From: an uncultured Sphingomonadaceae bacterium
Lineage (GTDB): Bacteria; Pseudomonadota; Alphaproteobacteria; Sphingomonadales; Sphingomonadaceae
Length of the DNA: 50,234 nucleotides
NCBI GenBank assembly: GCA_903871605.1
Contig: CAIQHF010000027.1
Span: 1 to 50,234 of the forward strand
Reading direction: 5' to 3'
This document shows, piece by piece, positions 20,098 through 43,380 of this stretch. The position numbers and the translations under genes were made by a program. The notes below the pieces were generated by a model that saw nothing but the letters and a program-made list of their open reading frames with translations, made no database searches and was not told where the DNA came from. Position 1 is the first letter of the stretch, and each line of letters begins with the position of its first letter.

Positions 20098-21672
20098 TCA
20101 GAGCCCCAGGGCTGTCGGGTTGAGCAGATTTTCAGGGTCGAGCTCGGCCTTGATCGCGCGCAGCAGCCGCATCGCGCCGGGATCGCGGTCGAGCGCATAG
20201 GGATAGAGCTTGCCGATCTGGAAATGCCCCGCCCCGTGGGCGTGCATCAGCGTGATGATGTGGTTTCGCATCGTCTCGACGAGCGCTGCGCCCTGGGGAT
20301 TTGCGGCGTAGCGCGGCAGCTTGGCGAGATAGGCCGGTTCCATCATCCGGTGATGGAATTCGGCGAGCTCGTCCTTCCAGTAGAGCGCGGGCTCGTAGAG
20401 GAAGGTCGACGCGCCGATACACGAGAACATCGCGCCGATATGGACGCCGTGCGTCTCCATCGCGTCCCTGCACGCGGTGACGTAGGACGTGAAGGCGGCG
20501 TGGAACGCCAGCACCTGCGAGTGCGGCAGCAGACCGTGCAACGGCACCCAGCGCTCGCCGTCGGGCCCGAGCATGTTGTGCAGCGGCTGGAACGGCATCG
20601 CCCGTACGACCGTCGGCACCGAGGCGGCGATCTCGCGGCCGAAGCCGTGCGCGATCCGCCGCAGCGACCCGAGCTTGGCGCGCGCCTCGACCGGATCATG
20701 GCCGTCGACGATATAATGGGCGGCATAGGGCGCGGCGGCGAGCACGCGTCTTCCTGCCGCTGCCATGCCGACGAGGCTCCGCACGCCCGTCGCCGCGTTG
20801 GGCGAGGACCGCCAGACGCTGCGCGCGACGGTCAGCATCGAGCCGGCGTCCTGCTTGGCGATCTGGCCTTTCGACAGCGCGAGATCGAGCCCGAAGCTCT
20901 TGTCCTCGATCTTCTCCGAGGCGAGCCGCGCCATGCAGGCGTGCAGCGTGGCGAAATCGGGGAAGGCGAATGAGGCGGCCTCGAACGCAGGCTTGCGCCG
21001 TAGCAGCTTGAGCGTGATCGCGGTCTTGATGCCGAGCGTGCCGGCGTCGCCGGTGAACAGGCCGGCGAGATCGGGGCCGTAGTTGCGATAGAATGCGCCA
21101 CCTGCGGCGCTGCCGGCGGTGCTGGTCCGGATGAACTCGCCCGACGGGAGCAGCGCCTCGATCGCGACGACGCTGTCGGCCGAGATGCCGGCGGCGTTGC
21201 TGCCATGGCCGTTCGCGTTCTGGCTGACGGTGCCGCCGACGCTCGCGGCAAGCCCGCTGAAGGTCCCGACGAAAGGGACCTTGAGCTGCCGCGGCGCCAA
21301 CGCGGCATCGAGCGCATGCCAGCTGATCCCCGGTTCGACGGTGACGAGCATGTCCTGCTCGTTGATCGCGACGATGCGGTTCAGCGCGCTCGAATCGATG
21401 ACGATGCTGTCGCTGCTCCGCGGCAGATAGCTGTCGGTGTAGGAGACCCCGCCGCCGCGGACGTGGATGGCGAGCCCCGCACCCGCGGCTGAGATCACGA
21501 TCGCGCGCAGCTCGTCGATCGTCTCCGGCCGTACCACGCCGCGCGGCAGCGCCCCCGCGCGGTAAACGTCCATCGCGAAGAAGGCGCGGTCGCTTTCGGG
21601 CAGCATGCGGCCCGATGCGCGGATCGATTCCGGCAATTCCATCTCGTCTGTCGTCCCCGTCTGCAGAGCCAT
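20098..21672 (-). CDS. FAD-dependent oxidase, PCMH/VAO superfamily (copy A)
   Basis: A 524-residue flavoprotein. The FAD-binding PCMH domain covers about residues 45-225 (VRGGGVSYTDSYLP at 71-84; TFSGLAASVGGTVSQN; GDAGTLGIKTAITLKLL). The C-terminal FAD-oxidase domain ends LDPENLLNPTALGL. In covalent family members a His follows the GGG; here it is Val76, so flavin attachment at that site is not expected. Members oxidise alcohols, phenols or hydroxy acids. The gene is last in an eight-gene operon, and its ATG overlaps the methyltransferase stop by one base (TGATG). Copy B at 41806 has exactly the same length and the same RGGGxSYTD pattern, but they are diverged (about half identical by eye in the FAD domain). 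Confidence 0.9.
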   Translation of the reverse strand: MALQTGTTDEMELPESIRASGRMLPESDRAFFAMDVYRAGALPRGVVRPETIDELRAIVISAAGAGLAIHVRGGGVSYTDSYLPRSSDSIVIDSSALNRIVAINEQDMLVTVEPGISWHALDAALAPRQLKVPFVGTFSGLAASVGGTVSQNANGHGSNAAGISADSVVAIEALLPSGEFIRTSTAGSAAGGAFYRNYGPDLAGLFTGDAGTLGIKTAITLKLLRRKPAFEAASFAFPDFATLHACMARLASEKIEDKSFGLDLALSKGQIAKQDAGSMLTVARSVWRSSPNAATGVRSLVGMAAAGRRVLAAAPYAAHYIVDGHDPVEARAKLGSLRRIAHGFGREIAASVPTVVRAMPFQPLHNMLGPDGERWVPLHGLLPHSQVLAFHAAFTSYVTACRDAMETHGVHIGAMFSCIGASTFLYEPALYWKDELAEFHHRMMEPAYLAKLPRYAANPQGAALVETMRNHIITLMHAHGAGHFQIGKLYPYALDRDPGAMRLLRAIKAELDPENLLNPTALGL

Positions 21673-22865: not shown

Positions 22866-22879
22866 CGCTATGTCCTTCG

Positions 22880-23563: not shown

Positions 23564-23611
23564 GATCGCCTCAACCTATCCGTAATGGCAACACCGCGCC
23601 GATCGGGCGCG

Positions 23612-24304
23612 TCACCACGGGACGACATCGCCCGAATATTCGTAGAAACGCGCCTCGTCCGCATCGACATCGGCCTGTGCGACGAGCGCATACATACCCT
23701 CGACGCTGGTCGAGACCTCGACGGTCGCGTCGGGGCCCCCCATGTCGGTCCTGGCCCAGCCGGGGCAGAGCAGCAGCACGGCACGGCCGCTGCCCGCATG
23801 GCGCGCGCCGAAGCTGCGGACGAGCATGTTGAGCGAGGCCTTGCTGATCCGATAGAGATCGACGTCGCCCTTGTTGTTGCGTGCCATGCTGCCCATCCCC
23901 GAAGAAGTGAAGGCGAACACGCCACCCGGCGGTACCAGGTCGCCGAGCAGTTCGGCGATGCGAATGCCGGCGATCGCGTTGGTTCCCAGCACGCGCAGGA
24001 TCTCGTTGTCGGATTGCTCCCAGATCGGCGCGAAGCTCGCCTGGAAAATCCCGGCGACGATGTGCAGCGCGTCGATACGGCGGTTCGCCAGGTCGTCGCG
24101 CAGCGCGGTCACCGCAGCGACGTCGGTGACGTCGAGCATGCGGATGTCGAGGCAGTCCGGATGGCGGACACCGAGCGCATCGAGCTCAACGGACGGCGTG
24201 ATCGTCGTCGCGATCACCGCCCAGCCATTGGCGAGATAGGTCTGCGCGAGCGCCAGGCCGAGGCCCTTCGTGGCGCCGACGACGAGGGCCGTTCGGCGCG
24301 TCAC
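23612..24304 (-). CDS. Short-chain dehydrogenase/reductase
   Basis: A 230-residue SDR of the compact type resembling C-factor/YciK-like proteins. The cofactor motif is GATKGLG; the catalytic pair is in YRISK with an upstream Ser run TSSGMG; the usual NNAG is reduced to IVAGIF. GTG 24304 is the start because it overlaps the hydrolase stop (GTGA), the coupling style seen throughout this operon. Probable NAD(P)-dependent alcohol or ketone conversion; the altered NNAG and C-terminal segment mean the substrate cannot be guessed. The gap to the following unknown gene is 48 bases, the widest in this operon. Confidence 0.85.
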   Translation of the reverse strand: MTRRTALVVGATKGLGLALAQTYLANGWAVIATTITPSVELDALGVRHPDCLDIRMLDVTDVAAVTALRDDLANRRIDALHIVAGIFQASFAPIWEQSDNEILRVLGTNAIAGIRIAELLGDLVPPGGVFAFTSSGMGSMARNNKGDVDLYRISKASLNMLVRSFGARHAGSGRAVLLLCPGWARTDMGGPDATVEVSTSVEGMYALVAQADVDADEARFYEYSGDVVPW

Positions 24305-25137
24305 TGCCGGGCTCCGTCGAGACCATGGAGGAAATGCGTGACGGCCTCCGCCCAGGCCTCGGGCTGCTCGTCGACGATATCGATGCCACTTCCCTCCAGC
24401 GCGACCAGCGGGAAGTCGGGTCGCAGCGCATGCGCGCGTTCGGCATGTGCGTAGATCGAGTCGCCGGTGTTGGTGAGGATCATCCCGGGCTGGCGCACCT
24501 GGGGGAGAGTCTCCGCCTGCCGGTAGGTGTAGGCGGCATGGTGGCCGTGCCAAAAGGCGCCGCGCCCGACGAGCGACTGGACGACGTAATCGCTCAGACG
24601 CGACGGCGGGGCGGCGCCATGGGCGAGCCGGTTCCGGATCGCGAACAGCTCGACCATATGCGCCGCCTCGGGGCGCGGGGCATAGCTCAGCTCCCATAGA
24701 TGCAGGCCGGACATGAAGCTGTCATACTCGGCATCGCTGACGAGCAGCGGGCCGTTGACGATCAATGCCGAGATGCGCTCGGGGAAGCGGAGCGCCGCCT
24801 CGGTCGCGACGAGCGCGCCGGTATGGTGGCCGAGGATCGCGGTCTCGGCGATGCCGAGCGTATCGAGCACCGCTGGCACCACTTGCGCATAGTCGCCGAC
24901 CGTCGGGACGAAACGTGTCGGATCGGACTGGCCGAAACCCGGCATGTCGATGCCGATCGGCCGGAAGCCGCGGCGTGCGAGCGGTTCATAGACGAGATCG
25001 AACTGGCTCGACGTCACCGGCGCCTGATGCAGCAGCACCAGCGGCTTGCCGTCGCCCAGCGTCTGATAATGGATCTGCCCGAACGGGCCATCCGCATAGC
25101 CGCGCCGCGGCCAGGCGTGAATCGTCTCAGATGTCAC
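24301..25137 (-). CDS. Alpha/beta-fold hydrolase homologue with His at the nucleophile position
   Basis: A 278-residue alpha/beta hydrolase-fold protein. It shares RRGYADGPFGQIHY at its N-terminus with the 14625 protein, then LVLLHQAPVTSSQF (oxyanion region) and DMPGFGQSD. The elbow is LGHHTGA, so His105 replaces the nucleophilic Ser. The C-terminal region where the catalytic His would be reads GSGIDIVDEQPEAW, with no His. TNTGDSI keeps an Asp. The triad is thus missing in the same way as its relative. GTG 25137 is the start, with AAGGTGG upstream; it overlaps the small-protein gene by 11 bases. It may use different chemistry such as C-C cleavage, lyase or isomerase action (inference). Confidence 0.83.
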   Translation of the reverse strand: MTSETIHAWPRRGYADGPFGQIHYQTLGDGKPLVLLHQAPVTSSQFDLVYEPLARRGFRPIGIDMPGFGQSDPTRFVPTVGDYAQVVPAVLDTLGIAETAILGHHTGALVATEAALRFPERISALIVNGPLLVSDAEYDSFMSGLHLWELSYAPRPEAAHMVELFAIRNRLAHGAAPPSRLSDYVVQSLVGRGAFWHGHHAAYTYRQAETLPQVRQPGMILTNTGDSIYAHAERAHALRPDFPLVALEGSGIDIVDEQPEAWAEAVTHFLHGLDGARQ

Positions 25138-25486
25138 CGCGCGCCACCTTGTCCAGCACGTCGCGATAACTGTCTTCGCTGTGCTTCTGCTCGAGTTCGG
25201 CCCGCCGCTGCTTGGCCAGATAGAAGAGCCGCTCGTAATAATCCTGTCGCCATTGTTCGCGGCTCTCGAGCAGATCCGTGTCGAGCGGCAGCGCCTCGAT
25301 CTCTTCGGCGAGCGGGATGCCATGCTTGGCGATGACGCGCTCGGCGGAGTCGAGCCGCTCGCGCAGCACCGCGATCTCCTGCGCGAGGATCAGCACCATC
25401 GACAGGGCGTCGTCCACGCCGGGGGTCTCGAAGAAGCCGGGGCGTTTGCCACGAACGGTGCGGGGGAGGGAGATGCGCTTGGTCAT
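25127..25486 (-). CDS. Small helical protein, possible enzyme subunit (copy A)
   Basis: A 119-residue, charged, mostly helical protein of no family I recognise. The conserved head RGKRPGFFETPGVDDALSM is shared almost word for word with the 116-residue protein at 41459 (GKRPGFYETPALDQMMSM). An amphipathic helix, AQEIAVLRERLDSAERVIAKHG, looks suited to coiled-coil pairing. A second shared block is the ESREQWRQDYYERLFYLAK segment near residues 73-92. In both places it is encoded next to partners of the methyltransferase/FAD oxidase set with overlapping reading frames, as expected for a stoichiometric subunit. Function unknown. Confidence 0.75.
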   Translation of the reverse strand: MTKRISLPRTVRGKRPGFFETPGVDDALSMVLILAQEIAVLRERLDSAERVIAKHGIPLAEEIEALPLDTDLLESREQWRQDYYERLFYLAKQRRAELEQKHSEDSYRDVLDKVARGDI

Positions 25487-25499: not shown

Positions 25500-26180
25500 T
25501 CAGCTTAGCGCGTCGATGTCGGCGAGGACGTCGGCGAGCGGACGGACATCGGCATATTTATACGCCATGTCGAAAAGATTGACCGCGTGCGCGACGGGGC
25601 TGCGATCATAGACGCATTCCTCGGGCACGGTGACCTTGAAGTTGTAGGCGAAGCCGTCGACCACGCTGCCGCGCACGCAGCCGCTGGTCGTGCAGCCGGT
25701 GACGACCAGGCTGTCCGCGCCGGCATCGATCAGATAGCTGGCCAGTGGCGTGCCGAAGAAGGCGCTAGGGTGCTTCTTGGGAAGCAGCACGTCGCCGGGC
25801 GAGGGCGACAGCGCCTCGACGAAACGATAGCCTTCGGCCGCGATCGTCATCAACTCGGGCACCTTCTCGGCGAGCCGTCCGCGATCGAACGCCTCCTTGG
25901 GCGCGACATGGGGGTAGAAGACGGGCAATCCCTTCTCGCGGAACTTGGCGAGCAGCGGCCGGATGTGGCGCACGGCGTCCCAGCCGGTGTCGCCGCAGCT
26001 CGTCTTATATTCCTTGATCGACTCCCAGAACGGCGCCTCGCGCGTGCCGATGGTGCGATACTGGACGTCGATGATCAGCAGCGCCGGGCGCTTGCCCATC
26101 CCGCTCGGCCGGCCGAAGCCGGCGGCGCGGTAGCGTCGCTCCTCTTCCTCGCTGACGATGCCGGTCCACGGGCGGTTCAT
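25500..26180 (-). CDS. Isochorismatase-family cysteine hydrolase (N-carbamoylsarcosine amidase-like)
   Basis: A 226-residue hydrolase. The catalytic triad of the family is present: Asp38 in LLIIDVQ, Lys135/136 in LLPKKHPSAFFGT, and the nucleophile Cys168 in TTSGCVR. The SAFFGTPL and GCTTSGCVR forms match the N-carbamoylsarcosine amidohydrolase / maleamate amidase / ureidoacrylate branch rather than true isochorismatases; these release ammonia (and CO2) from amide or carbamoyl groups. It overlaps the upstream lyase gene by four bases (26177-26180) and precedes the small protein by 13 bases. It could act after ring opening by the amidohydrolase and HyuAB encoded divergently. A diverged second enzyme is at 33676. 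Confidence 0.9.
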   Translation of the reverse strand: MNRPWTGIVSEEEERRYRAAGFGRPSGMGKRPALLIIDVQYRTIGTREAPFWESIKEYKTSCGDTGWDAVRHIRPLLAKFREKGLPVFYPHVAPKEAFDRGRLAEKVPELMTIAAEGYRFVEALSPSPGDVLLPKKHPSAFFGTPLASYLIDAGADSLVVTGCTTSGCVRGSVVDGFAYNFKVTVPEECVYDRSPVAHAVNLFDMAYKYADVRPLADVLADIDALS

Positions 26181-27049
26181 CGCGCGGGCCCGCCCTCATA
26201 TTTCAGACGCAGCGCATCATATTCCGGTGTGCGGACCATCCGCTGGCGCTCGACGAATCCGGCAAGGCGATCGTGCACCGCGGCCAGCGAACCGGTCGCG
26301 TGGAGGCTGCCCAGCACGTCCTGCATCCCGGCAACCGCGGCCTGCAGCGCGGCGTTGGCGTAGAGGATGAGCTTGTAGCCCATCGCATCGAATTCCGCTG
26401 CCGAGAAGGCGGGGGTCTTTCCGCCGAACACGATGTTGATGAGATGCGGCAGCGCGTTCCGTGCCGGTGCGTCGCGCATCTGCGCCTCGGTGGTGAGTGC
26501 TTCGACGAACAGGATGTCGGCGCCCGCCTCGGCATAGGCGGCCGCACGGTCGATCGCGGCGTCATAGCCTTCGATCGCACAGGCGTCGGTACGCGCGATG
26601 ATCAGCGTGGCCTCGTTGCGCCGTGCGTCGCAGGCGGCACGGATCTTGCCGATCATCTCGGCCGCCGGCACGACCTCCTTGCCCTCGAAATGCCCGCAAC
26701 GCTTGGGGAAGACCTGGTCCTCGAGCTGGATCGCCGCCGCGCCGGCGGCCTCGAGCCGCTTGACGGCGTGGTAGCAGCTGACGGAATTGCCGTAGCCCGT
26801 GTCGGCGTCGACGACCAGCGGGAGGTCCACCACGGCCGCGATGCGTTCGACCGCGCCGGCCATGTCGGTGAGGTTGAGGATGCCGATGTCGGGGAGCCCC
26901 AATTCGGTATTCGCGACACCCGCGCCGGTGACGTAGAGCGCTTCGTAGCCGATATCCTCGGCGACACGCGCGGCCAGCGGGTTGGCGACGCCGGGCAGCA
27001 ACAGGGCCCGGCCCTGGGTGATACGGTCCCTGAATCGAAGCCTGTCCAT
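26177..27049 (-). CDS. Isocitrate lyase/PEP mutase-family carbon-carbon lyase
   Basis: A 290-residue TIM-barrel enzyme. DADTGYG (81-87) holds metal-binding Asp residues, and QVFPKRCGHFEGK (K116-H120) contains the KRCGH catalytic Cys loop that marks lyases such as 2-methylisocitrate lyase and 2,3-dimethylmalate lyase, as opposed to PEP mutases. ARTDA and VEALT are also in place. The expected reaction is Mg-dependent aldol-type cleavage of a 2-hydroxy-dicarboxylate or tricarboxylate to pyruvate or glyoxylate plus a dicarboxylate. AGGAG lies just upstream of ATG 27049. It is the first gene of the minus operon, so the final cleavage into central metabolites may be made here. Confidence 0.9.
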   Translation of the reverse strand: MDRLRFRDRITQGRALLLPGVANPLAARVAEDIGYEALYVTGAGVANTELGLPDIGILNLTDMAGAVERIAAVVDLPLVVDADTGYGNSVSCYHAVKRLEAAGAAAIQLEDQVFPKRCGHFEGKEVVPAAEMIGKIRAACDARRNEATLIIARTDACAIEGYDAAIDRAAAYAEAGADILFVEALTTEAQMRDAPARNALPHLINIVFGGKTPAFSAAEFDAMGYKLILYANAALQAAVAGMQDVLGSLHATGSLAAVHDRLAGFVERQRMVRTPEYDALRLKYEGGPAR

Positions 27050-27173
27050 AACGCTCCTGCCGTTTTTTTCCGGTTTAGCCGCCGCACCGTCGTCCGCCAG
27101 CGGAAGGCGACGCCTAGCCGCCAGGCGAACAGCGCGGCGAAACGTCCGGCGATATCGGTGCGGCGACGGCAAT
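27050..27173. promoter_or_regulatory. Divergent promoter region between two catabolic units
   Basis: This 124-base gap separates the start of the eight-gene minus operon from the plus-strand GTPase-amidohydrolase unit and must hold both promoters. It contains a T7 run (27063-27069) and the short palindrome TCCGCCAGCGGA near 27101-27112, a candidate regulator site. No clear -35/-10 boxes were found. Confidence 0.45.
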
Positions 27174-28154
27174 ATGCCGCGCATGGCGCGTCGTATCACC
27201 GTCGACATTCTCACCGGCTTTCTCGGCAGCGGGAAGACGACCTTGCTCAACCGGCTGTTGGTGACGCCGGGCTTCGGCAATGTGGCCGTGGTCGTCAACG
27301 AACTCGGCGAGATCGGGCTCGATCATCTGCTCGTCGAGCAGCGGAGCGACCAGATCGCGCTGCTCGAAGGCGGCTGCCTGTGCTGCGCGGTCGTCGATTC
27401 GCTGCCCGAAACGCTGCTCGAGCTGTGCCGCAAGCGCGCCGGTGGCGAACTGCCCGCGTTCGATCGCATCGTGATCGAGACTACGGGTCTCGCCGATCCC
27501 GGTCCGATCGCGGAGGTCATCCGCCGAAGCCCGCTGCTCGCCCATTTTCTGGTGCCGGGCATCGTCGTGACCGCGCTCGATGCCTCGGGTCGCTGGGATG
27601 CGGTCGAGCGCCATCCCGAGGCGACGGCACAGCTGGTGCTGGCGGATCGCATCATCCTCACCAAGCTCGATCTGCGCGATGCGTGGGACGAGACGGACGA
27701 GCAGCGCCTGCGCGCGCTCAACCCGTTCGCGGAGATCGTGGACGCCTTCGCGATCGTCGCGGATTCGGGGCGGCTCGTCGCCCCCGTCCCGGCGCTCGCG
27801 CCACGCCCGCCGGCAGCGCCCGCGCGGCACAGCCACGGCGTCGAAGCGCAATATTTCGCGGTCGCGGGCGAGGTGACCCGCGCCGGGCTCGCCGCATTGG
27901 CCGGCGCCCTGGCACACCGCCTCGGCGTCCGCCTGCTGCGCTGCAAGGGCGTCCTCCGCGTCGCCGGGCGCGCGATTCTGGTGCAGGGCGTCGGCGCCCG
28001 CTTCCACTTCGCGGATGCGCCGGCGTCGGCCGTGTCGGCGCCAAGCGGGCTCACCTGCATCGTGCAGCACGTCCAGCCGGAAGAGATCGAGACACTGCTT
28101 CGCTGGCTGTTCGTACCAGAAGGCACGCAACCACCGGCCCCGGAGGATCTATGA
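27174..28154 (+). CDS. G3E-family P-loop GTPase (CobW/YjiA-like)
   Basis: A 326-residue GTPase. The P-loop GFLGSGKTT is at 15-23, the metal-binding CxCC motif is GGCLCC (Cys68, 70, 71), ETTGLADP is the switch II equivalent, and TKLD is the base-recognition motif; the C-terminal CobW_C domain follows, including RLLRCKGVLRV. G3E GTPases move or insert metal ions (Zn, Co, Ni). Its stop overlaps the start of the metallo-amidohydrolase gene (ATGA), so a role as the dedicated metallochaperone for that enzyme is a natural inference. ATG 27183 is an alternative start; neither has a strong Shine-Dalgarno. Confidence 0.9.
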   Translation: MPRMARRITVDILTGFLGSGKTTLLNRLLVTPGFGNVAVVVNELGEIGLDHLLVEQRSDQIALLEGGCLCCAVVDSLPETLLELCRKRAGGELPAFDRIVIETTGLADPGPIAEVIRRSPLLAHFLVPGIVVTALDASGRWDAVERHPEATAQLVLADRIILTKLDLRDAWDETDEQRLRALNPFAEIVDAFAIVADSGRLVAPVPALAPRPPAAPARHSHGVEAQYFAVAGEVTRAGLAALAGALAHRLGVRLLRCKGVLRVAGRAILVQGVGARFHFADAPASAVSAPSGLTCIVQHVQPEEIETLLRWLFVPEGTQPPAPEDL

Positions 28155-31784: not shown

Positions 31785-31804
31785 TTCGCGAGAGAGAGAC
31801 CGCC

Positions 31805-35328: not shown

Positions 35329-36096
35329 ATGGAAAAGGGTGTCCCAATCCGCTCAATCAGCCGCTCGATTGCGGTGCTTCAGGCGATCAACAAGCATGGT
35401 TCGCTCTCGATGATGGCGATCGCCCGGCAGGGCAGCGTGCCGTATCCGACCGCATGCCGCATCGTGCAGACGCTGATCCTCGAGGGCTTGATCGAGCAGG
35501 AGCCGGCGCGCAAGCGCTACCGGGCGACCGCGCTCGTCCAGTCGCTGGCGCACGGCTATCAGTCCGAGAATGAGCTGGTCGGGATAAGCCGGCCGCATAT
35601 CCGCGAGATCACCCGCCAGATCGGCTGGCCGGTATCGATCACCACCAAGGTCGGCTCACGCATGGTCGTGCTCGACTCGACGCATGCCGAGACCTCGCTG
35701 ACGTTCGAGCGCTATTATCCCGGCTTCACGCTGCCGCTGCTGGGCTGCGCGTCGGGGCGGCTCTGCCTAGCGCATATGGAGCCCGAGGAGCGCGAGAACG
35801 TGCTGCGCTGGCGCGCGGTCGGCGACGACGGCAATGGCGAGGCGTTGCTCGAAACGACCGAGAGCCTCAATGCGATCTGCGAGCAGGGCTATGCGACGCT
35901 GGGCTGGAACCGGCACAATCTGACGCCGGGAAAGACCTCGTCGATCGCGGTACCGATCTTCCAGAACGGCCGCTTCGTGTCGGCGCTGACGCTGATCTAT
36001 TTCGCCGCGGCGATGCGGCAGGATCACGCGATCGAGCGCTACCTGTCGCTGATGGTCATGAAGGCCGAGGCGATCACCGCCGAACTGTCCAAGTAA
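35329..36096 (+). CDS. IclR-family transcriptional regulator
   Basis: A 255-residue regulator. The N-terminal winged helix-turn-helix (about residues 8-70: SISRSIAVLQAINKHGSLSM ... PTACRIVQTLILEGLIEQ) is followed by the IclR effector domain with LPLLGCASGRLCLAHM and SSIAVPIFQNGRFVSALTL. IclR proteins sense small organic acids or aromatic intermediates and switch catabolic operons. Start at 35329 with CGGAG upstream; a GTG at 35281 is open but unconserved. It lies between the duplicated units and is the only transcription factor gene in the 35-kb metabolic region, making it the prime candidate for control of the neighbouring ALDH, monooxygenase and perhaps other operons. Confidence 0.93.
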   Translation: MEKGVPIRSISRSIAVLQAINKHGSLSMMAIARQGSVPYPTACRIVQTLILEGLIEQEPARKRYRATALVQSLAHGYQSENELVGISRPHIREITRQIGWPVSITTKVGSRMVVLDSTHAETSLTFERYYPGFTLPLLGCASGRLCLAHMEPEERENVLRWRAVGDDGNGEALLETTESLNAICEQGYATLGWNRHNLTPGKTSSIAVPIFQNGRFVSALTLIYFAAAMRQDHAIERYLSLMVMKAEAITAELSK

Positions 36097-36128: not shown

Positions 36129-36135
36129 GTCATGG

Positions 36136-37365
36136 TCAGGCGATTTCCAGCTCGTCCGCGAGCGACGTGATCATCGACTGGCTCAGCAAATAGCTGCGCC
36201 GTGCGTCGCGGTCGTTGACCAGATGCTCAAGCTGCTGCTCGCGGACCGCCGTCCCGTCGATCGTCTCGAGCGCGGTCTTGTTGGCGATCGTCTGGGTCTG
36301 GACGAAGCGATTGGTGATCGTGCGTCGCTGCCGGTCGAAGCGATCGAGCAGCGGATCGGCGTCGGCACCCTCCTTCAGGATCGCGATCAGTTTCTCGGAG
36401 AGATTCCACGCGTCGTGAATGCCCGAATTCATCCCGAATCCGCCGAGCGGATTGTTGAGATGCGCCGCATCGCCGATCAGCAACGCGCGCCCCGAGCGGA
36501 ATGACTTGGCGACCCGCTGATGGACCCGATAGACGGTGCGATGGTGCGTCTCGATGCTCGGCGCGTCCGCCCCCAGCAGCTGGCGGAACACCGCGTCCTT
36601 GCTCTCGTCGCTCAGCAGTTCGCGTTCGGAGATGGTCTCCGGCTGCGGCACCAGGATCCGCCACAACCCGGGCACGCGCAGCAGCACGCACCAGGCGGGG
36701 GGATCGGCGACATAATTGACCCCCGCGACCCACGGCAGGTGCCGTTCGATCGGATAGGCGGTCGACAGCGTGAGAAAGCTCTCCGGATAGGTGAAGCCGT
36801 CGAACCCGACGCCCAGCCATTTGCGCGCGATCGAATTGGCGCCGTCCGCCGCGATCAGATAGTCGGCGCGATATTCCTTCAGGTCGACGAGGCCCTCGGC
36901 ATGCGCGACCACGCCCGCCGAATCCTGCTCGAAGTGGATCATGCGACGGCGGAATTCGACCGTCGCACACGGGATCTTGTCGAGCTTCGCGGCGATCAGC
37001 CGGACCAGCTTATATTGCTCGCACTGCAGGCGGTACGGATAGGCCGTCTTGTCGGCGATATCGCTCATATCGAGCGCATAATGCTTGCCCGATGCGCGGT
37101 TGGCATATTGATAGACCGGCGCGCGCAGGCCTTGCGCCTCCAGCTCCGGAAGCAGGCCCAGCGCCGCCATCATCTCCAACGTCGGCGGATGGAAGGTGGA
37201 GGCACGCATGTCCTGCTGGATCTCGGCTGCCGCCTCGATCACGTGGACCGCGATGCCCTGTTTGGCCAGCGCATAGGCGGCGACCATTCCCGTCGGGCCA
37301 CCGCCGGCGATCAGGACCTGCGTGCGCACCGATGAACGGTCCGCCTCGCCCAGCATCGCGGTCAT
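36136..37365 (-). CDS. FAD-dependent monooxygenase (group A aromatic hydroxylase-like)
   Basis: A 409-residue flavoprotein. The dinucleotide-binding GGGPTG (21-26) near the N-terminus, the DG motif YLIAADGANS and the GD motif ALLIGDAAHLNNPLGGFGMN are the three signatures of PobA/MhpA/PHBH-type hydroxylases, which use NAD(P)H and O2 to hydroxylate aromatic or heteroaromatic rings. ATG 37365 overlaps the stop of the DUF1330 gene (ATGA), so the two are co-translated. It converges on IclR across a strong hairpin. Substrate unknown; a ring-hydroxylating role is expected. Confidence 0.92.
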   Translation of the reverse strand: MTAMLGEADRSSVRTQVLIAGGGPTGMVAAYALAKQGIAVHVIEAAAEIQQDMRASTFHPPTLEMMAALGLLPELEAQGLRAPVYQYANRASGKHYALDMSDIADKTAYPYRLQCEQYKLVRLIAAKLDKIPCATVEFRRRMIHFEQDSAGVVAHAEGLVDLKEYRADYLIAADGANSIARKWLGVGFDGFTYPESFLTLSTAYPIERHLPWVAGVNYVADPPAWCVLLRVPGLWRILVPQPETISERELLSDESKDAVFRQLLGADAPSIETHHRTVYRVHQRVAKSFRSGRALLIGDAAHLNNPLGGFGMNSGIHDAWNLSEKLIAILKEGADADPLLDRFDRQRRTITNRFVQTQTIANKTALETIDGTAVREQQLEHLVNDRDARRSYLLSQSMITSLADELEIA

Positions 37366-37649
37366 GCCTCGATAAGCCGCATGGTGACATCCGCGGCGCC
37401 TTCGCGCGCGGCGCGCGCCGTCTGGTAGGTCGACGATTCGATATAGGCGCGCGCCGATGCGGCATCGGGGAAACGCGAGACGACGATACGCTCGCCGTCG
37501 GGGCCGCTGCCCTCGAGGAAGGCGCTGACCGGCCCTCGCACGATATATTCGCCGCCGTGCGCCTCGCTCAAGCCGGCGATCGCCTTGCCATAGGCTGCGA
37601 AGCGTTCGGCGTCGCGTACATGAACGGTCGCGACAATATAGACAGGCAT
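37362..37649 (-). CDS. DUF1330-family small protein (dimeric alpha/beta barrel fold)
   Basis: A 95-residue protein. YIVATVHVRDAERFAAYGKA at the start and GERIVVSRFPDAASARAYIES in the second half are characteristic of DUF1330 proteins, which adopt a ferredoxin-like dimeric alpha/beta-barrel fold. Such proteins are often found with catabolic oxygenases, and some relatives act as monooxygenases or isomerases, but this family has no general function. GGAGGGGG precedes ATG 37649. It is the first gene of a two-gene minus unit with the flavin monooxygenase and starts beside the ALDH promoter region. Confidence 0.87.
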   Translation of the reverse strand: MPVYIVATVHVRDAERFAAYGKAIAGLSEAHGGEYIVRGPVSAFLEGSGPDGERIVVSRFPDAASARAYIESSTYQTARAAREGAADVTMRLIEA

Positions 37650-37849
37650 CCTGCAACCCCCTCCAAACTCTCGCAATGACCTTACGGGGGCGGTCGAGGC
37701 TGGGTACCTCCAGCGATCGAATTCTCCACTGAGCGGAGAGTGACGGCGCGCAGCCGCGCAACATCGCGGTTTCGGTTGCATTCCATTGTCGATATCCGGT
37801 TCCGTCCTCGGCGGGGCTGCCCCGGGGCAAGAGACAAAAGGTGTCGATC
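37650..37849. promoter_or_regulatory. Divergent promoter region with near-palindromic operator
   Basis: This 200-base gap separates the DUF1330-monooxygenase unit (minus) from ALDH-SDR (plus). At 37723-37739 lies TCTCCACTGAGCGGAGA, a 17-bp near-palindrome with one mismatched pair. Its TCTCC-N5-GCGGA core recurs at 35235 in front of the IclR gene. IclR-family operators are commonly 13-20 bp palindromes of this kind, so this is a good candidate site through which the regulator could control both directions. Confidence 0.6.
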
Positions 37850-39358
37850 ATGGAACTGCTCGGTTTCGTTCCCCCCAAGAGTGCGCGCGTCGCAGCGACG
37901 CTCGACGCGCCGGCGGACGCCAGCATGCTGATCGGCGGCGCGTGGGTCGGTGCCGAGGGCGATGCGCGGATCGCATCGATCGACCCGGGCACGGGGCGCG
38001 TCATCGCGAACGTGCCGGAGGCATCGGCCGGAGACGTCGATCGGGCGGTCAGCGCCGCGCGGGCGGCATTCGCCGGCTGGGCCGCGACGCCGCCCGCTGC
38101 GCGCGCCACGATACTGTGGCGGATCGCCGATCTGATCGACCAGCATATCGACGAACTCGCGGAGCTCGAAACGCTCGATCAAGGCAAGCCGCTATATGTC
38201 GCGCGCTGGGCGGAAATCCCGGGCGCTGCGATGCAGTTCCGCTTTTTCGCCGGACAGGCGACCGCGATCGAAGGGCGCACGATCACCCCGTCGATCACCT
38301 ACCAGCCGGCCGGCAAGGAGGTGCACGCCTGGACGTTGCGCGAGCCGGTCGGGGTGGTCGCGGCGATCGTGCCGTGGAACTCGCCGCTGGTCTTGACTGC
38401 GATGAAGCTTGCCCCCGCGCTCGCGGCGGGGTGCACCGTGGTGCTCAAGCCGGCCGAAGATACCTCGCTCACCGCGCTGCGGCTCGGCGAGTTGATGATG
38501 GAGGCGGGGCTGCCGGCGGGCGTGCTCAACATCGTCACCGGCCGCGGCGCGACGTGCGGCGCGGCGCTCGCCGCGCATCACGGCGTCGACAAGGTGGCGT
38601 TCACCGGCTCGACCGCGACGGGCCGGGCGATCCTCGATGCGTCGAAGGGCAATATCAAACGCGTCACGCTCGAGCTGGGCGGCAAGTCCCCGGTCGTGAT
38701 CCTCCCCGATGCGGCGCTCGATCTCGCCATCGCGGGCGCCGCCAACGCGATCTTCTTCAATGGCGGCCAGGTCTGCGTCGCGGGATCGCGCGCCTATGTC
38801 CATGCCGACATCTACGATCGCGTGGTCGATGGGATTGCGGGTTATGCCGCGGGGATGAAGCTCGGCCACGGGCTCAATCCCGATACGCAGATGGGGCCGC
38901 TGGTCTCGGCGCGGCAGGCCGAACGCGTCGAGGGGTTGATCGGCGGTGCGCGCGCGGCGGGCGCCTCGATCGTCACCGGCGGGGATCGCCATGGCGCGGC
39001 GGGCACCTTCATCGCCCCGACCGTCATCGCCGATGTCTCGCAGGAGATGGAGATCGTGCGCGAAGAGGTGTTCGGCCCGGTGCTGGTCGTCCAGCGCTTC
39101 ACCGATCTCGACGACGTCGTCGAGGCCGCCAATGACAGCGTCTATGGGCTCGCGGCGAGCATCTGGACGGAGTCGCTGTCGAGCGCCCACCGCCTGTCGC
39201 GCCGGATCCAGGCGGGCACCGTGTGGATCAACTGCCACTCCATGTACGACGCCAGCCTGCCGATCGGCGGTGTCAAGCAGTCGGGCTACGGCCGCGACAG
39301 CGGCGTCGCCGCGCTCGACAACTATCTCGAATGGAAGACGGTCTGCGCCGTCCTGTGA
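37850..39358 (+). CDS. NAD(P)-dependent aldehyde dehydrogenase
   Basis: A 502-residue enzyme of the ALDH superfamily. PWNSPLV (cofactor/substrate tunnel), FTGSTATG (Rossmann loop), LELGGKSP (catalytic Glu) and GGQVCVAGSR (nucleophile Cys) are all intact, as is the C-terminal GGVKQSGYGRDSG. It resembles the aromatic/betaine aldehyde dehydrogenase group used to oxidise aldehydes from side chains. ATG 37850 with AAAGGTG upstream is preferred over the GTG at 37841. It is followed 28 bases later by an SDR gene, so the pair would oxidise an alcohol and an aldehyde in a common route. Confidence 0.94.
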   Translation: MELLGFVPPKSARVAATLDAPADASMLIGGAWVGAEGDARIASIDPGTGRVIANVPEASAGDVDRAVSAARAAFAGWAATPPAARATILWRIADLIDQHIDELAELETLDQGKPLYVARWAEIPGAAMQFRFFAGQATAIEGRTITPSITYQPAGKEVHAWTLREPVGVVAAIVPWNSPLVLTAMKLAPALAAGCTVVLKPAEDTSLTALRLGELMMEAGLPAGVLNIVTGRGATCGAALAAHHGVDKVAFTGSTATGRAILDASKGNIKRVTLELGGKSPVVILPDAALDLAIAGAANAIFFNGGQVCVAGSRAYVHADIYDRVVDGIAGYAAGMKLGHGLNPDTQMGPLVSARQAERVEGLIGGARAAGASIVTGGDRHGAAGTFIAPTVIADVSQEMEIVREEVFGPVLVVQRFTDLDDVVEAANDSVYGLAASIWTESLSSAHRLSRRIQAGTVWINCHSMYDASLPIGGVKQSGYGRDSGVAALDNYLEWKTVCAVL

Positions 39359-39386
39359 CGCGCAGTCGATCCCGCAAGGAAGCGAC

Positions 39387-40133
39387 ATGCAAGACATGAA
39401 GGGCCGAACCGCCGTCGTCACCGGCGCGGCATCGGGAATCGGGCGTGCGGCGGCGCGCGCGTTGCACACCCGTGGCGCGACGGTGATCGGCTGGGATCGC
39501 GCGGGCGACGGGTCCGGCGACGGCTTTGGCATCCGCGGGATCGACATCACCGACGACGCCGCCGTGGCGGCGGCCGGTCGGGCGGCGCTGGCGCTGGGGC
39601 CGGTCGACATGCTGGTCAACGCCGCGGGCGGTGGCGGCATCGGCTCGGCGACGGACATCGCCGTCGACGAGTGGGACAAGGCGATGGCGCTCAACCTGCG
39701 CGGCACGCTGATGGTCAGCCGCGCGTTCCTGCCCGCGATGATCGCGCGCAAGTCGGGCGCGATCGTTCATGTCGGCTCGACCTTCGGCCTTGTCGCGCGC
39801 GAGGGGTGTGTCGGCTATTCGGTGAGCAAGGCGGCCGTGATCCACCTCACCAAATGCATGGCGGTCGATCTCGCCGACACGGGGGTCCGCGTGAACTGCG
39901 TGTGCCCCGGCATCATCGTTACCGGGATGACGGCCCCGGTCTTTGCCGAAGGTGCCGAGGCGACCGCGCGGCAGAATGTCGCGCTCCACGCCATGCGCCG
40001 CGCCGGACAGCCCGACGAGGTCGCCCGGACGATTGCCTTTCTCCTATCGGAGGATGCCAGCTATGTCACCGGCGCGGTGGTGCCCGTCGATGGTGGATAT
40101 ACGGCCGGCAAATGGATAGCCGAGCCCGCATGA
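39387..40133 (+). CDS. Short-chain dehydrogenase/reductase
   Basis: A 248-residue classical SDR: TGAASGIG, NAAGGGG in place of NNAG, Ser in HVGSTFG, YSVSK and the terminal PVDGGYTAG. The acidic residue in GWDRAG after the second strand suggests NAD. AAGGA lies about 6 bases before ATG 39387. It follows ALDH in the same unit, and the second methyltransferase begins 108 bases after its stop. Likely oxidises a hydroxyl group of the pathway intermediate. Confidence 0.92.
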   Translation: MQDMKGRTAVVTGAASGIGRAAARALHTRGATVIGWDRAGDGSGDGFGIRGIDITDDAAVAAAGRAALALGPVDMLVNAAGGGGIGSATDIAVDEWDKAMALNLRGTLMVSRAFLPAMIARKSGAIVHVGSTFGLVAREGCVGYSVSKAAVIHLTKCMAVDLADTGVRVNCVCPGIIVTGMTAPVFAEGAEATARQNVALHAMRRAGQPDEVARTIAFLLSEDASYVTGAVVPVDGGYTAGKWIAEPA

Positions 40134-40241: not shown

Positions 40242-41462
40242 ATGCTCAACACGTTCCAGCAGGCGCCGCATGACGCTCTCCCGATCACGACTGCCGACGA
40301 GGCCGCACGGCAGGAGTTCGTGAAGAGCCTCAAGGGTTTCATCCAGCGCGGCATCCTGCCGGGGCTCGGCCCGATCTACCGGACCCGCGCCTCCGCGCGG
40401 TTTGAAGCAGCAGCGGGCCGCCCGCCCGCGGACCGTCACGACATTCGCAAGGCGATGGTGCCGGACAGCTATTTCCAGTCCTATGCGTCGGTCAACCGGA
40501 TCAGCCAGGAACTGATGTGGGACAGCGTGATCGACAGCATCGATCGCGGCCGCGACGATCTCGAGGCGCGGATCACGGCCGCCTCGGCGAAGAATGCCGG
40601 CGAACTGCGCATCCCGAAGGATTTCGCGGTGCCGCGCTATGTTTCGGCTCTGGATATCCACTGCATGCCCGGCGGCTATGCCGGCCACGACCCTGCCACG
40701 TCGCCGGCGCTGGGGGCGCTCTACGATCGCGGCGTCTATCTCTATTCGATGGGCTATACCGGCCCCAATAACGACGATCTCGGCCGATCGGTCTGCAATT
40801 ACATCAAGCGCAATCTTGCCGGGTTCAGCCCGCGGCGCATCCTCGACATGGGTTGCACGGTCGGGCACTCGACGCTGCCCTACAAGGAGCTGTTTCCCGA
40901 CGCCGAGGTGTGGGGCATCGACGTCGCTGCGCCGCAGATCCGCTATGCCCACGCCCGCGCCGGGGCAATCGGGCTCGACGTCAACTTCGCGCAGATGAAC
41001 GCAGAGAAGACCGACTTCGAGGACGGCTATTTCGATCTCGTCGTCAGCCACATCCTGCTCCACGAAACCTCGGGCAAAGCGATGCCGCGGGTGGTGGAGG
41101 AGTGCTTCCGCCTGCTCGCGCCCGGCGGATACATGATCCATGCGGATCTGCCGCCGTTCGACCTGATGGATCCGTTCACCCAGTTCATCCTCGACAATGA
41201 GACCTATTATAACAACGAGCCCTTCTGGGGCGCGATGCGCGAGCTCGACCAGGTCGCGATCGCCAAGAAGGCGGGCTTTCCGGCCGATCGGATACGCTTC
41301 GACACCGCGCCGATGGCGGTGATGGAATTCGCCGCGCAGGAAGCCTCCGGCTATAGTGAGGATGCCGCATCCGGCGTCGCCGAGCGCGACTTCACCGCCG
41401 GCGAATTCGCGCCGGGCGGCGGCTGGGAAGTGCTCGTCGCGCGCAAGGGAGAGACAGCGTGA
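40242..41462 (+). CDS. SAM-dependent methyltransferase with long N-terminal domain (copy B)
   Basis: A 406-residue paralogue of the 21672 protein. Both begin MLNTFQQA and share the whole core: RRILDMGC(T/S)xGHSTLPYKE, EVWGIDVAAPQ, FAQMNAEKTDFEDGYFDLVV, and a very conserved late stretch DPFTQFxLDNETYYNNEPFW. By eye the catalytic half is much more alike (mostly identical) than the first 100 residues, so substrate specificity may differ. ATG 40242 with AGGAG 7 bases ahead. It overlaps the small-protein gene by GTGA (41459-41462). Confidence 0.91.
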   Translation: MLNTFQQAPHDALPITTADEAARQEFVKSLKGFIQRGILPGLGPIYRTRASARFEAAAGRPPADRHDIRKAMVPDSYFQSYASVNRISQELMWDSVIDSIDRGRDDLEARITAASAKNAGELRIPKDFAVPRYVSALDIHCMPGGYAGHDPATSPALGALYDRGVYLYSMGYTGPNNDDLGRSVCNYIKRNLAGFSPRRILDMGCTVGHSTLPYKELFPDAEVWGIDVAAPQIRYAHARAGAIGLDVNFAQMNAEKTDFEDGYFDLVVSHILLHETSGKAMPRVVEECFRLLAPGGYMIHADLPPFDLMDPFTQFILDNETYYNNEPFWGAMRELDQVAIAKKAGFPADRIRFDTAPMAVMEFAAQEASGYSEDAASGVAERDFTAGEFAPGGGWEVLVARKGETA

Positions 41463-41809
41463 GCGATGCGGCGATGGTGCGCGACGCCAAGGGCAAGCGC
41501 CCCGGCTTCTACGAGACTCCGGCGCTCGATCAGATGATGTCGATGATCATGGTGCTGGCCGGCGAGGTTTCGGTGCTGGCCGACCATGTCGACTCGATCG
41601 AACGCGTGGCCGCCGCCAACGGCCTCGATCTGGCGGGCGGGATCGCCCGGCTCGCGCTCGATCAGGACGCGCTCGAGGCGCGCGAGGCGCGGCGTCAGGC
41701 GATGCTCGACCGGCTCTTCTACCTGATGCGCAAGGAGGCGGCCGAGGCCGCCAACCAGGAATCGTCAGCCGGCTATATCGCCGTCATCGACGAGATCGCC
41801 GTCGGATGA
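41459..41809 (+). CDS. Small helical protein, possible enzyme subunit (copy B)
   Basis: A 116-residue paralogue of the 25127 protein: GKRPGFYETPALDQMMSM, then an EVSVLADHVDSIERVAA helix and the LEAREARRQAMLDRLFYL block. It starts at GTG 41459, overlapping the methyltransferase stop, and its own stop overlaps the FAD oxidase ATG (41806-41809). Being sandwiched with overlaps on both sides strongly suggests that the three products are made in fixed ratio, as in a complex. No known family; no signal peptide. Confidence 0.77.
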   Translation: MSDAAMVRDAKGKRPGFYETPALDQMMSMIMVLAGEVSVLADHVDSIERVAAANGLDLAGGIARLALDQDALEAREARRQAMLDRLFYLMRKEAAEAANQESSAGYIAVIDEIAVG

Positions 41810-43380
41810 ACGATGCCGTTGCCACGCGCGGCGCGGCGGAAGCGCTGATCGCCATCGTGGGCGCCGAGCATTGCCTGACGGGCGACGCGATGCTGCCCTT
41901 CGCGACCGACGTCTATCGCCAGCTGCACCGGCCGGTCGCGGTCGTGCGGCCGGGCAGTGTCGAAGCGGTCCAGCAGATCGCGCGCCATGCGAGCGAGACC
42001 GGGACCGGCCTGTCGGTGCGCGGCGGCGGTGCCTCCTACACCGACGCCTATCTGCCGCGCGAGGAGGGGCAGATCCTCATCGACATGACGCGGCTCGACC
42101 GCATCGTCGTGATCGACGAGGAGAATGGCTATGTCACCGTCGAGGCCGGCGTAACCTGGGCGGCGCTCAAGCAGGCGCTCGACGCCCGCGGCTTGCGCAC
42201 GCCCTTCTGGGGGCCGTTTTCGGGAGTCGCGGCGACGGTCGGGGGTTCGCTGTCGCAGAACACGATCAGCCATGGTTCGGCGGCGTACGGCATCTCGGCG
42301 CAGTCGGTGCAGGCGCTCGATGTCGTGCTGGCGGATGGGCGACTGCTGCGCACCGGCTCTTCGGCGGCGGGGCTCGCACCCTTCGCGCGCTTCTTCGGGC
42401 CGGACCTGACGGGGTTGTTCACCGGCGATGCGGGCGCGTTCGGCATCAAGGTGCGCGCCACGCTTCCGCTGATCAAGGCACGCGCCGCGCATCGCCCGAT
42501 CTCCTTCGCCTTCCCCGATTTCGACTCGATCCACGAGGCGATGCGGAGATCGGCGCAGGATCGGCTCGAGGATACGCATTTCGCGATCGACGCCGCGCTC
42601 TCGCAGGGACAGATCGCGCGCCAGGACCGCGCCGGCGCAACCTTCGGCATGGCAATCTCGATCGTGCGCAGCGCGCCATCGCTTGTCGCCGGTCTGCGCC
42701 AGCTGGTGCAGGCCGGGCTCTCGGCGCGGCGGGTGCTCAACCGGTCGGCCTATATGCTTCACTATATCGTCGAAGGTGTCGACGATGCCGAGGTGCGGTC
42801 GAGGCTCGCCCGGATTCGCGCGATATTGCGGGATATCGGCCGCGAGATCCTGGCGACGGTGCCGGCCGTCGTGCGCGGTATGCCGTTTGCGCCGCTCTAC
42901 AACACACTTGGCCCGAACGGCGAGCGCTGGGTGCCGCTGCACGGCATTCTGCCGCATTCGGCGGTACCGCGCTTCCACCGCGCGCTCGACGATTTCTATG
43001 CCGAGCGGGCGGGGGAGATGAAGCGTCTGGGCGTGTGGACGGGCGGCATGTTCGGTACGGTCGGATCGAGCGGCTTCCTCTATGAGATCGCCATTTACTG
43101 GCCTGACGAGATCACGCCCTATCACCGGGCGATGGTACCTGCGGATTATCTCGACAAGCTGCCGAAATTCCCCGCAAACCTGGCCGCGCGCAGCTATGTC
43201 GATCGGCTCAAGTCGGATCTGATCGCGCTCTATGTCGCGCATGGTGCGATCAACTTCCAGCTCGGTAAGGCCTATCCCTATGCGGCGCGGCTCGAGCAGG
43301 CGCCGCTCGATCTGGTCCGCGCCATCAAGACGTGTCTCGATCCCGACGGACGGGTGTCGCCCGGCAATCTGGGCTTGTAG
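41806..43380 (+). CDS. FAD-dependent oxidase, PCMH/VAO superfamily (copy B)
   Basis: A 524-residue flavoprotein, exactly the length of copy A at 20098. The FAD loop VRGGGASYTDAYLP is at 71-84, FSGVAATVGGSLSQN and GDAGAFGIKVRATLPLI follow, and the C-terminus is LDPDGRVSPGNLGL, as in FAD-linked oxidase C-terminal domains. The covalent-flavin His position is Ala76. Middle blocks such as PFAPLYNTLGPNGERWVPLH and HGAINFQLGKAYPYA align with copy A. It is the last gene of the second methyltransferase-small protein-oxidase unit. Substrate unknown. Confidence 0.91.
   Translation: MNDAVATRGAAEALIAIVGAEHCLTGDAMLPFATDVYRQLHRPVAVVRPGSVEAVQQIARHASETGTGLSVRGGGASYTDAYLPREEGQILIDMTRLDRIVVIDEENGYVTVEAGVTWAALKQALDARGLRTPFWGPFSGVAATVGGSLSQNTISHGSAAYGISAQSVQALDVVLADGRLLRTGSSAAGLAPFARFFGPDLTGLFTGDAGAFGIKVRATLPLIKARAAHRPISFAFPDFDSIHEAMRRSAQDRLEDTHFAIDAALSQGQIARQDRAGATFGMAISIVRSAPSLVAGLRQLVQAGLSARRVLNRSAYMLHYIVEGVDDAEVRSRLARIRAILRDIGREILATVPAVVRGMPFAPLYNTLGPNGERWVPLHGILPHSAVPRFHRALDDFYAERAGEMKRLGVWTGGMFGTVGSSGFLYEIAIYWPDEITPYHRAMVPADYLDKLPKFPANLAARSYVDRLKSDLIALYVAHGAINFQLGKAYPYAARLEQAPLDLVRAIKTCLDPDGRVSPGNLGL

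What the first reader, a model, noticed from the sequence alone, without database searches (positions are those of the whole stretch)
20098..43380. Duplicated methyltransferase / small protein / FAD oxidase module in one locus
Three gene families occur twice within about 23 kb. The A set is methyltransferase 21672-22865, small protein 25127-25486 and FAD oxidase 20098-21672. The B set is 40242-41462, 41459-41809 and 41806-43380. In B the three genes overlap at both junctions (GTGA, ATGA); in A the methyltransferase and oxidase overlap by one base. The order differs, the strands are opposite, and both oxidases are 524 residues. The oxidases look old in divergence while the methyltransferase cores remain close. 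Such a retained pair suggests a three-component enzyme, possibly methylating then oxidising a substrate, specialised in parallel for two intermediates. I know of no described system with this composition, which makes it the best candidate for a new system here.
Basis: partly seen in the sequence, partly recalled or inferred. Interest (0 to 1): 0.85.

Follow-up and report, generated by a model that had tools for sequence, protein, structure and literature searches.

The report
Methyltransferase with dedicated small partner
Two old versions of a methyltransferase with its own small partner protein, together with a flavin oxidase, sit in a bacterial gene region that probably breaks down a nitrogen-containing compound by a route for which I found no description.

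Summary
In detail: methyltransferase (MT), small protein (SP) and FAD oxidase (OX) each occur twice (69%, 46%, 49% identity). The three-subunit-enzyme reading is only partly supported. MT and SP form a unit: in 80 public loci plus the window, 102 of 102 MT genes have an SP nearby, 99 within 160 bp, and the two diverge in step (r 0.95). In 385 sampled genomes, 23 hold both, 3 SP only, 2 MT only. Outside close kin, though, only 34 of 63 MT hits have SP beside them. OX is looser: adjacent in 36, distant in 30 of 66 pairs (r 0.62). Both sit among catabolic genes (TonB receptor, P450, hydantoinase A/B, amidases, a methylisocitrate-lyase-type enzyme); more such genes lie on contig 43 of the same genome. 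Best reading: SP is a dedicated helical subunit of a SAM methyltransferase which, with OX, serves an undescribed catabolic pathway for a nitrogen heterocycle, probably through a cyclic imide or lactam. The substrate is unknown; alkylmaleimides from pyrroles or tetrapyrroles are a speculative guess.

The parts
20098..21672 (-). OX-A, FAD_binding_4 oxidoreductase, 524 aa
   Evidence: A clade with L078/L081
21672..22865 (-). MT-A, class I SAM methyltransferase, 397 aa
22880..23563 (-). uncharacterised 227-aa protein, paralogue of 34360-35187
   Evidence: no Pfam match
23612..24697 (-). SDR (true start probably near 24300; domain from about residue 133)
24301..25323 (-). alpha/beta hydrolase (true start probably below 25323)
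   Evidence: orthologue in L078
25127..25486 (-). SP-A, small helical partner, 119 aa
25500..26180 (-). isochorismatase-like amidase A
26177..27298 (-). methylisocitrate lyase/PEP-mutase family lyase (domain from about residue 87; start uncertain)
16508..18694 (+). TonB-dependent receptor, conserved next to A-type sets
   Evidence: L078, L081
18664..20046 (+). cytochrome P450, conserved next to A-type sets
   Evidence: L078, L081
29736..31784 (+). hydantoinase/oxoprolinase A (closest named model: caprolactamase alpha, below its cutoff)
31610..33679 (+). hydantoinase/oxoprolinase B (start uncertain)
33607..34302 (+). isochorismatase-like amidase B
34360..35187 (-). paralogue of the 227-aa protein
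35281..36096 (+). IclR-type regulator
36136..38109 (-). FAD_binding_3 monooxygenase (domain from residue 262; start uncertain)
37841..39358 (+). aldehyde dehydrogenase
38946..40133 (+). SDR (start uncertain)
40242..41462 (+). MT-B, class I SAM methyltransferase, 406 aa, with ~115-aa N-terminal helical domain
41459..41809 (+). SP-B, small helical partner, 116 aa from GTG or 111 aa from ATG 41474
41806..43380 (+). OX-B, FAD_binding_4 oxidoreductase, 524 aa

Best explanation
MT and SP form a two-subunit SAM-dependent methyltransferase, SP being a dedicated all-helical accessory subunit (stabiliser or activator) that would dock on MT, perhaps on its N-terminal helical domain. OX is a separate flavin dehydrogenase or oxidase acting in the same pathway, not a subunit. 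The A and B sets are two old subfamilies, each embedded in its own catabolic operon of one island for a nitrogen heterocycle. After uptake (TonB receptor, MFS) and oxidative steps (P450, FAD monooxygenase, OX, with methylation by MT-SP), the ring would be hydrolysed as a cyclic imide or lactam by hydantoinase A/B or a PuuE-like enzyme. A maleamidase-like isochorismatase would then release ammonia, a LeuCD-type hydratase would act on the substituted maleate, and the methylisocitrate-lyase-type enzyme would split the product into pyruvate plus a small acid. Shown by sequence: the gene families, the pairing, the co-divergence, the two old lineages, the genomic context. Inferred: physical MT-SP contact, order of steps, direction (catabolic) and every substrate.
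For: MT-SP unit: 102 of 102 MTs in MT-selected loci have SP within 4 kb, 101 of 102 on the same strand, 99 within 160 bp, Mantel r 0.95; 55 of 70 SP hits in SP-selected genomes have MT within 3 kb; co-occurrence 23/3/2 of 385. Diverged MT paralogues keep their own diverged SP. SP: predicted helical, pLDDT 82, no Pfam, NCBIfam or PDB-sequence match and no PDB-fold match at E<=0.001. MT: SAM-fold core with invariant motif residues. OX in the same pathway: 17 of 21 OX genomes have MT. Pathway: recurrent neighbour clusters by locus, of 81, are PuuE-like 38, ALDH 32, FAD_binding_3 32 and 25, Amdase-like 28, IclR 22, PEPM 17, isochorismatase 17, LeuC-like 14, hydantoinase B 12 (each named from one representative or from the window's own member). 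The same genome's contig 43 carries a third MT with a weak SP (33 bits), ADH, a PEPM lyase, LeuC/LeuD-like, PuuE-like, Amdase-like and a third copy of the 227-aa family. Annotated plasmid pJE1 shows MT-SP-FAD oxidoreductase-OX-ADH-hydantoinase A/B-SSADH in one run.
Against: 29 of 63 MT hits in the class sample have no SP within 3 kb; only five of these lie within 350 bp of a contig end. So SP is not needed for every MT of the wider family, or acts in trans. Eight SP hits lie more than 3 kb from any MT without being weak or at a contig end (one, G258:C12, has an MT about 6 kb off), e.g. beside a GMC oxidoreductase/acyl-CoA dehydrogenase cluster (L115) or a TRAP transporter (L118). PuuE-like occurs without MT in 10 of 19 genomes, so the ring-opening part is not tied to MT. 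The window itself lacks LeuCD, PuuE-like and Amdase-like genes, and the genome has a second LeuC-like gene (C51), so one of the two may be ordinary leucine biosynthesis. The PuuE-like protein is far below its NCBIfam cutoff and has no Pfam match. No complex was modelled, no substrate is known, and methylation in a degradation pathway has no obvious rationale.
Confidence: 0.6

Rival explanations
1. One reading: MT, SP and OX form one three-subunit enzyme that methylates then oxidises its substrate, in two specialised copies.
For: Overlapping genes in B; contiguous MT-SP-OX in many B-type loci; near OX co-diverges well with MT (36 pairs, r 0.90).
Against: OX is more than 0.8 kb from MT in 30 of 66 pairs (r 0.58) and 16 of 82 full-length MTs have no full OX within 8 kb in the loci as cut; in L015 and L050 the OX near the MT is of another OX clade; OX is missing above threshold in 8 of 25 MT genomes; many other genes share the operons.
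Confidence: 0.1
2. MT is a SAM-fold protein that no longer methylates (for example a cyclase, decarboxylase or hydroxylase using SAM structurally), with SP completing its active site.
For: Methylation is unexpected in catabolism; structure matches include the SAM-fold cyclase SpnF among many true methyltransferases; invariant H140, H274-E275-T276-S277, N324 and E326 could be catalytic.
Against: SAM-binding motif residues (G204, C205, G208, D227) are invariant in the 34 rows aligned; most of the listed structure matches are true methyltransferases.
Confidence: 0.15
3. The island is biosynthetic (a natural product made by methylation and oxidation) rather than catabolic.
For: P450, MT and FAD oxidases are usual tailoring enzymes; a REDY-like HapK gene stands divergently beside MT in pJE1 and L123.
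Against: No PKS, NRPS, terpene or other scaffold gene among the 40 window ORF queries scanned or the 20 neighbour representatives scanned; hydrolases, ALDH, IclR, TonB and a lyase recur instead. Neighbour clusters 31 to 49 were mostly not scanned.
Confidence: 0.12

Closest known systems
Small-molecule class I SAM methyltransferases (RebM, AtmM, phosphoethanolamine methyltransferases, Rv2258c)
   Same: SAM-binding core aligns by sequence (profile positions about 193-312) and by fold.
   Different: Sequence matches cover mainly the core; the ~115-aa N-terminal helical domain, the conserved DIHCMPGGY, HETS and NNEPFW stretches and the genetically linked SP are this family's own as far as these hits show.
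Methyltransferase plus small activator subunit (Trm112 type; recalled, not searched)
   Same: A catalytic MT with a dedicated small non-catalytic protein.
   Different: SP is helical and shows no PDB sequence match or fold match at E<=0.001; one SP usually goes with one MT rather than with several targets; the context is catabolic, not translation.
GlcD / D-lactate dehydrogenase / p-cresol methylhydroxylase / alkylglycerone-phosphate synthase flavoproteins
   Same: N-terminal FAD_binding_4 half, profile E 1e-41 to 1e-25.
   Different: Below every NCBIfam cutoff listed; the match stops at about residue 260, so the substrate-binding half is its own.
Nicotinate nic pathway and the 2,3-dimethylmaleate route (recalled)
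   Same: FAD_binding_3 monooxygenase, alpha/beta hydrolase, isochorismatase-like amidase, maleate-isomerase-fold protein, LeuCD-type hydratase and a PEPM-family lyase recur around MT-SP; the window lyase matches 2,3-dimethylmalate lyase 3fa3 at 6e-47 but methylisocitrate lyases better.
   Different: No NicX-type ring dioxygenase among the 20 neighbour representatives scanned; adds hydantoinase A/B, PuuE-like, MT-SP and OX.

Membership tests
class I SAM methyltransferase | Methyltransferase domain above Pfam cutoff | tested here: met
   Methyltransf_25 75 bits versus cutoff 27 for both copies
class I SAM methyltransferase | glycine-rich SAM motif and acidic residue after beta 2 | tested here: met
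   G204, G208 and D227 invariant in the 34 rows aligned, of 102 MTs collected
class I SAM methyltransferase | methyl transfer to a substrate | not testable with these tools
   needs an enzyme assay
VAO/PCMH-type flavin oxidoreductase | FAD_binding_4 domain | tested here: met
   105 and 118 bits, cutoff 26.4
VAO/PCMH-type flavin oxidoreductase | C-terminal half and covalent-flavin residue of a named subfamily | tested here: inconclusive
   FAD-oxidase_C reached only by OX-A over 50 residues; no NCBIfam equivalog cutoff reached; flavin linkage not examined
Known small MT-activator families | recognisable sequence or fold match of SP | tested here: not met
   no Pfam or NCBIfam, no PDB sequence at E<=5, no PDB fold at E<=0.001
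Dimethylmaleate-type terminal route | LeuCD-type hydratase and PEPM-family lyase together | tested here: met
   both LeuC- and LeuD-like plus lyase in L066 and L068, one of the two plus lyase in L061 and L064; own genome C43:58513-61401
Dimethylmaleate-type terminal route | activity on alkylmaleate or alkylmalate | not testable with these tools
   the LeuC-like protein passes the LeuC model cutoff, and the lyase is nearer methylisocitrate lyase
nic (aerobic nicotinate) pathway | ring-cleaving NicX dioxygenase in the cluster | tested here: inconclusive
   none among the 20 neighbour representatives scanned; two of these had no Pfam match and clusters 31 to 49 were mostly not scanned

The most novel reading that the evidence does not exclude
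The island encodes an undescribed aerobic pathway that mineralises a pyrrole-type natural compound (possibly tetrapyrrole pigments such as chlorophyll or bilins) through alkylated maleimides, and it uses a previously unrecognised class of two-subunit methyltransferase (MT-SP), in several paralogous copies per genome, as a catabolic tool.
Probability: 0.12. Interest if true: 0.88.

Novelty: new variant of a known kind. Interest (0 to 1): 0.55.

Why it matters
A protein family with no Pfam model (SP) turns out to be a close companion of a methyltransferase family found in Alphaproteobacteria, Burkholderiales, Alteromonas and its kin, and Steroidobacteraceae, with four MT-SP pairs on 90 kb of one plasmid. 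That gives a function hypothesis (dedicated methyltransferase subunit) for a family that, where I saw an annotation, is called hypothetical protein, and it marks a widely shared catabolic island whose substrate is unknown. If the imide route is right, the substrate could be an abundant nitrogen heterocycle whose bacterial breakdown I did not find described in the papers I could search.

Tried and rejected
A. Recent local duplication of a module: rejected. In the MT and OX trees (quick trees of 40 MT and 32 OX rows from 32 chosen loci, of 102 and 67 collected) A groups with L078/L081, and B with L004, L005, L006, L009, L010 and L012 (L003 too in the MT tree; its OX was not in the OX tree). L071 joins A in the MT tree but not in the OX tree, where it is a long branch. 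N. guangzhouense and N. resinovorum hold both types.

B. SP as a widespread generic protein: rejected; SP in 26 of 385 genomes of the class, of which 23 have MT, and in 4 of 398 genomes of the phylum sample at E<=1e-5, the own genome included. Two of the 26 (G007, G136) are weak and probably false.

C. Naming the substrate from neighbours: not achieved. PuuE-like was tested as a pathway marker: 9 of 19 genomes with it also have MT, so the link is partial. A HapK/RedY-like neighbour was a lead to pyrrole chemistry but was found in only 2 of 106 sequences scanned.

No title or abstract start listed described a cluster of this composition. The library holds only open-licence PMC papers.

E. Limits: the genome search scored at most 4 (MT), 11 (SP) or 3 (OX) candidates per genome, so copy numbers are lower bounds. 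The cutoffs 1e-28 (MT) and 1e-70 (OX) were my choice, to leave out generic methyltransferases and FAD oxidases. Neighbour counts come from loci cut at up to 10 kb on either side, a simple ORF caller and clustering. The 80 loci are the best 80 of 304 MT relatives, so they favour close kin. The profiles were built from chosen rows: 43 of 102 SP, 34 of 102 MT, 23 of 67 OX. The 55 of 70 SP count includes one short SP hit (G029:C60:23265) whose nearest MT sits beside another SP. The MT-SP distance correlation has no background control other than MT-OX and SP-OX. One search failed (script error); its comparison was made.
Full report
What is there. Pfam gives methyltransferase domains for MT and FAD_binding_4 for OX, and nothing for SP; NCBIfam gives no model above its cutoff for MT or OX among those listed and nothing for SP. 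An all-against-all comparison of the window's gene models shows that more than three families are shared between the sets: a 227-aa family without any Pfam match (22880-23563 versus 34360-35187, 50%), isochorismatase-like amidases (35%), and more distant SDRs and alpha/beta hydrolases.

Set A is one run on the minus strand: lyase, amidase, SP, alpha/beta hydrolase, SDR, 227-aa protein, MT, OX (27298 down to 20098), with P450 and TonB receptor on the plus strand next to it. Nearly the same genes recur in L078 and L081 (Novosphingobium guangzhouense and N. resinovorum). Set B follows hydantoinase A/B, amidase, IclR, aldehyde dehydrogenase and SDR and ends at a SURF1 gene.

Beyond this genome. 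A scan of genome contigs with MT-B gave 304 relatives, the best 80 kept: many Sphingomonadales and Caulobacter, Azospirillum/Niveispirillum/Nitrospirillum, Burkholderiales, Alteromonas and Pseudocolwellia, a Cellvibrionaceae and a Steroidobacteraceae bacterium. In these plus the window, 102 MT genes (including diverged paralogues at about 29-42% identity to the window's MTs) all have an SP within 4 kb: 101 of 102 on the same strand, 99 within 160 bp; the three more distant ones are the A-type sets at about 2.2 kb. Pairwise distances of MT and SP correlate at r 0.95 over 102 pairs and 0.87 over the 66 full-length MTs that also have an OX within 8 kb, against 0.62 for MT-OX and 0.53 for SP-OX. 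OX within 0.8 kb of MT (36 pairs) follows it (0.90); more distant OX (30 pairs) less (0.58). Sixteen of 82 full-length MTs have no full OX within 8 kb in the loci as cut.

Those loci were chosen by MT, so I reversed the test. An SP profile (43 rows) against 385 genomes of the class found 26; an MT profile found 25 and an OX profile 21 in the same genomes. SP and MT together: 23; SP alone 3 (two weak); MT alone 2; Fisher p 1e-31. MT and OX together: 17. By place, 55 of 70 SP hits have an MT within 3 kb. Of the 15 that do not, five are within 300 bp of a contig end, two are weak hits, eight are genuine. In the other direction only 34 of 63 MT hits have an SP within 3 kb. In some genomes (G029, G160, G258, G336, G027) strong MT paralogues stand alone; in the first four of these, others sit in MT-SP or MT-SP-MT arrays. 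So SP is mostly beside MT, but the wider MT family does not always have SP. In a phylum sample of 398 genomes SP was found in 4.

Age. MT and OX trees (quick trees of chosen rows) place A with L078/L081 (and, for MT, L071) and B with another group, each with SH-aLRT support of 99 or 100. A and B are thus old lineages carried side by side, not a duplication made here. N. resinovorum plasmid pSA1 carries four MT-SP pairs within the 90 kb fetched, including A and B sets.

The proteins. MT models as a SAM-dependent methyltransferase core behind a ~115-aa helical N-terminal domain (pLDDT 86); PDB matches are many small-molecule methyltransferases, by sequence mainly over the core. SAM-motif residues are invariant in the 34 rows aligned. 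SP models as helices, the longest from residue 16 to 48 (pLDDT 82), with no match at E<=0.001 in the PDB or viral structure libraries. OX resembles D-lactate dehydrogenase, glycolate oxidase and p-cresol methylhydroxylase over its FAD half.

Pathway context. Around MT-SP in the 80 loci and window, the recurrent clusters are (loci of 81): PuuE-like cyclic amidohydrolase 38, aldehyde dehydrogenase 32, FAD_binding_3 monooxygenases 32 and 25, Amdase/maleate-isomerase-fold 28, DUF1838 27, IclR 22, methylisocitrate-lyase family 17, isochorismatase-like 17, LeuC-like 14, LeuD-like 11, hydantoinase B 12 and A 11. Each name rests on one representative or on the window's own member; the PuuE-like one is below its model's cutoff and has no Pfam match. 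The window lacks some of these, but contig 43 of the same genome carries a third MT with a weak SP (33 bits), then ADH, the lyase, LeuD/LeuC-like, PuuE-like (96% to Sphingomonas sp. Leaf20), Amdase-like and a third 227-aa protein. A second LeuC-like gene lies on contig 51. The window amidase B matches N-carbamoylsarcosine amidohydrolase and 3ot4/3uao (3uao is, from memory, the maleamate amidase NicF). The lyase matches methylisocitrate lyases best, with 2,3-dimethylmalate lyase lower in the list. Together this suggests hydrolysis of a cyclic imide or lactam, deamidation, hydration of a substituted maleate and cleavage to pyruvate. That order is inference from known families; the substrate is not identified. 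PuuE-like also occurs without MT in 10 of 19 genomes, so this part is not exclusive to MT carriers. On plasmid pJE1 the run MT, SP ('hypothetical protein'), FAD-dependent oxidoreductase, OX, zinc-binding dehydrogenase, hydantoinase A/B, succinate-semialdehyde dehydrogenase is annotated.

Verdict. The duplicated set is real and the MT-SP association is strong and, as far as my searches go (listings and abstract starts only), undescribed. A three-subunit enzyme is not the best reading: SP is most likely a subunit of MT, and OX another enzyme of the pathway. Confidence: MT-SP functional unit about 0.8; catabolic island about 0.75; imide/lactam route about 0.4; pyrrole or tetrapyrrole substrate about 0.12.

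Noticed in passing
22880-23563 (-) and 34360-35187 (-): A further duplicated family (50% identity) with no Pfam match, next to MT-A in set A; a third copy lies on contig 43 of the same genome (C43:63435-64280).
   Followed up: partly
L150/L151 (own genome, C43:36000-75000): A second catabolic island with a third MT and weak SP and with lyase, LeuC/D-like, PuuE-like and Amdase-like genes; the PuuE-like protein is 96% identical to one in Sphingomonas sp. Leaf20, suggesting recent transfer.
   Followed up: partly
L190, L191 (N. resinovorum pSA1 1066000-1156000): Four MT-SP pairs, including A- and B-type sets with OX, within 90 kb of one conjugative megaplasmid.
   Followed up: partly
L192 8383-10015; L123 7308-8950: A REDY-like HapK gene (a family known from prodigiosin clusters, recalled) stands divergently next to MT in two loci.
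   Followed up: partly
   Followed up: no
L113, L115: SP without MT in both; in L115 a GMC oxidoreductase gene stands beside it and cytochrome b561, acyl-CoA dehydrogenase and CoA-transferase genes follow.
   Followed up: partly
9383-10267 (-), 12241-13611 (+), 13598-14614 (+): TauD-type dioxygenase, GPH-family MFS transporter and Gfo/Idh/MocA oxidoreductase left of set A; the MFS family recurs near MT-SP in 35 of 81 loci.
   Followed up: no
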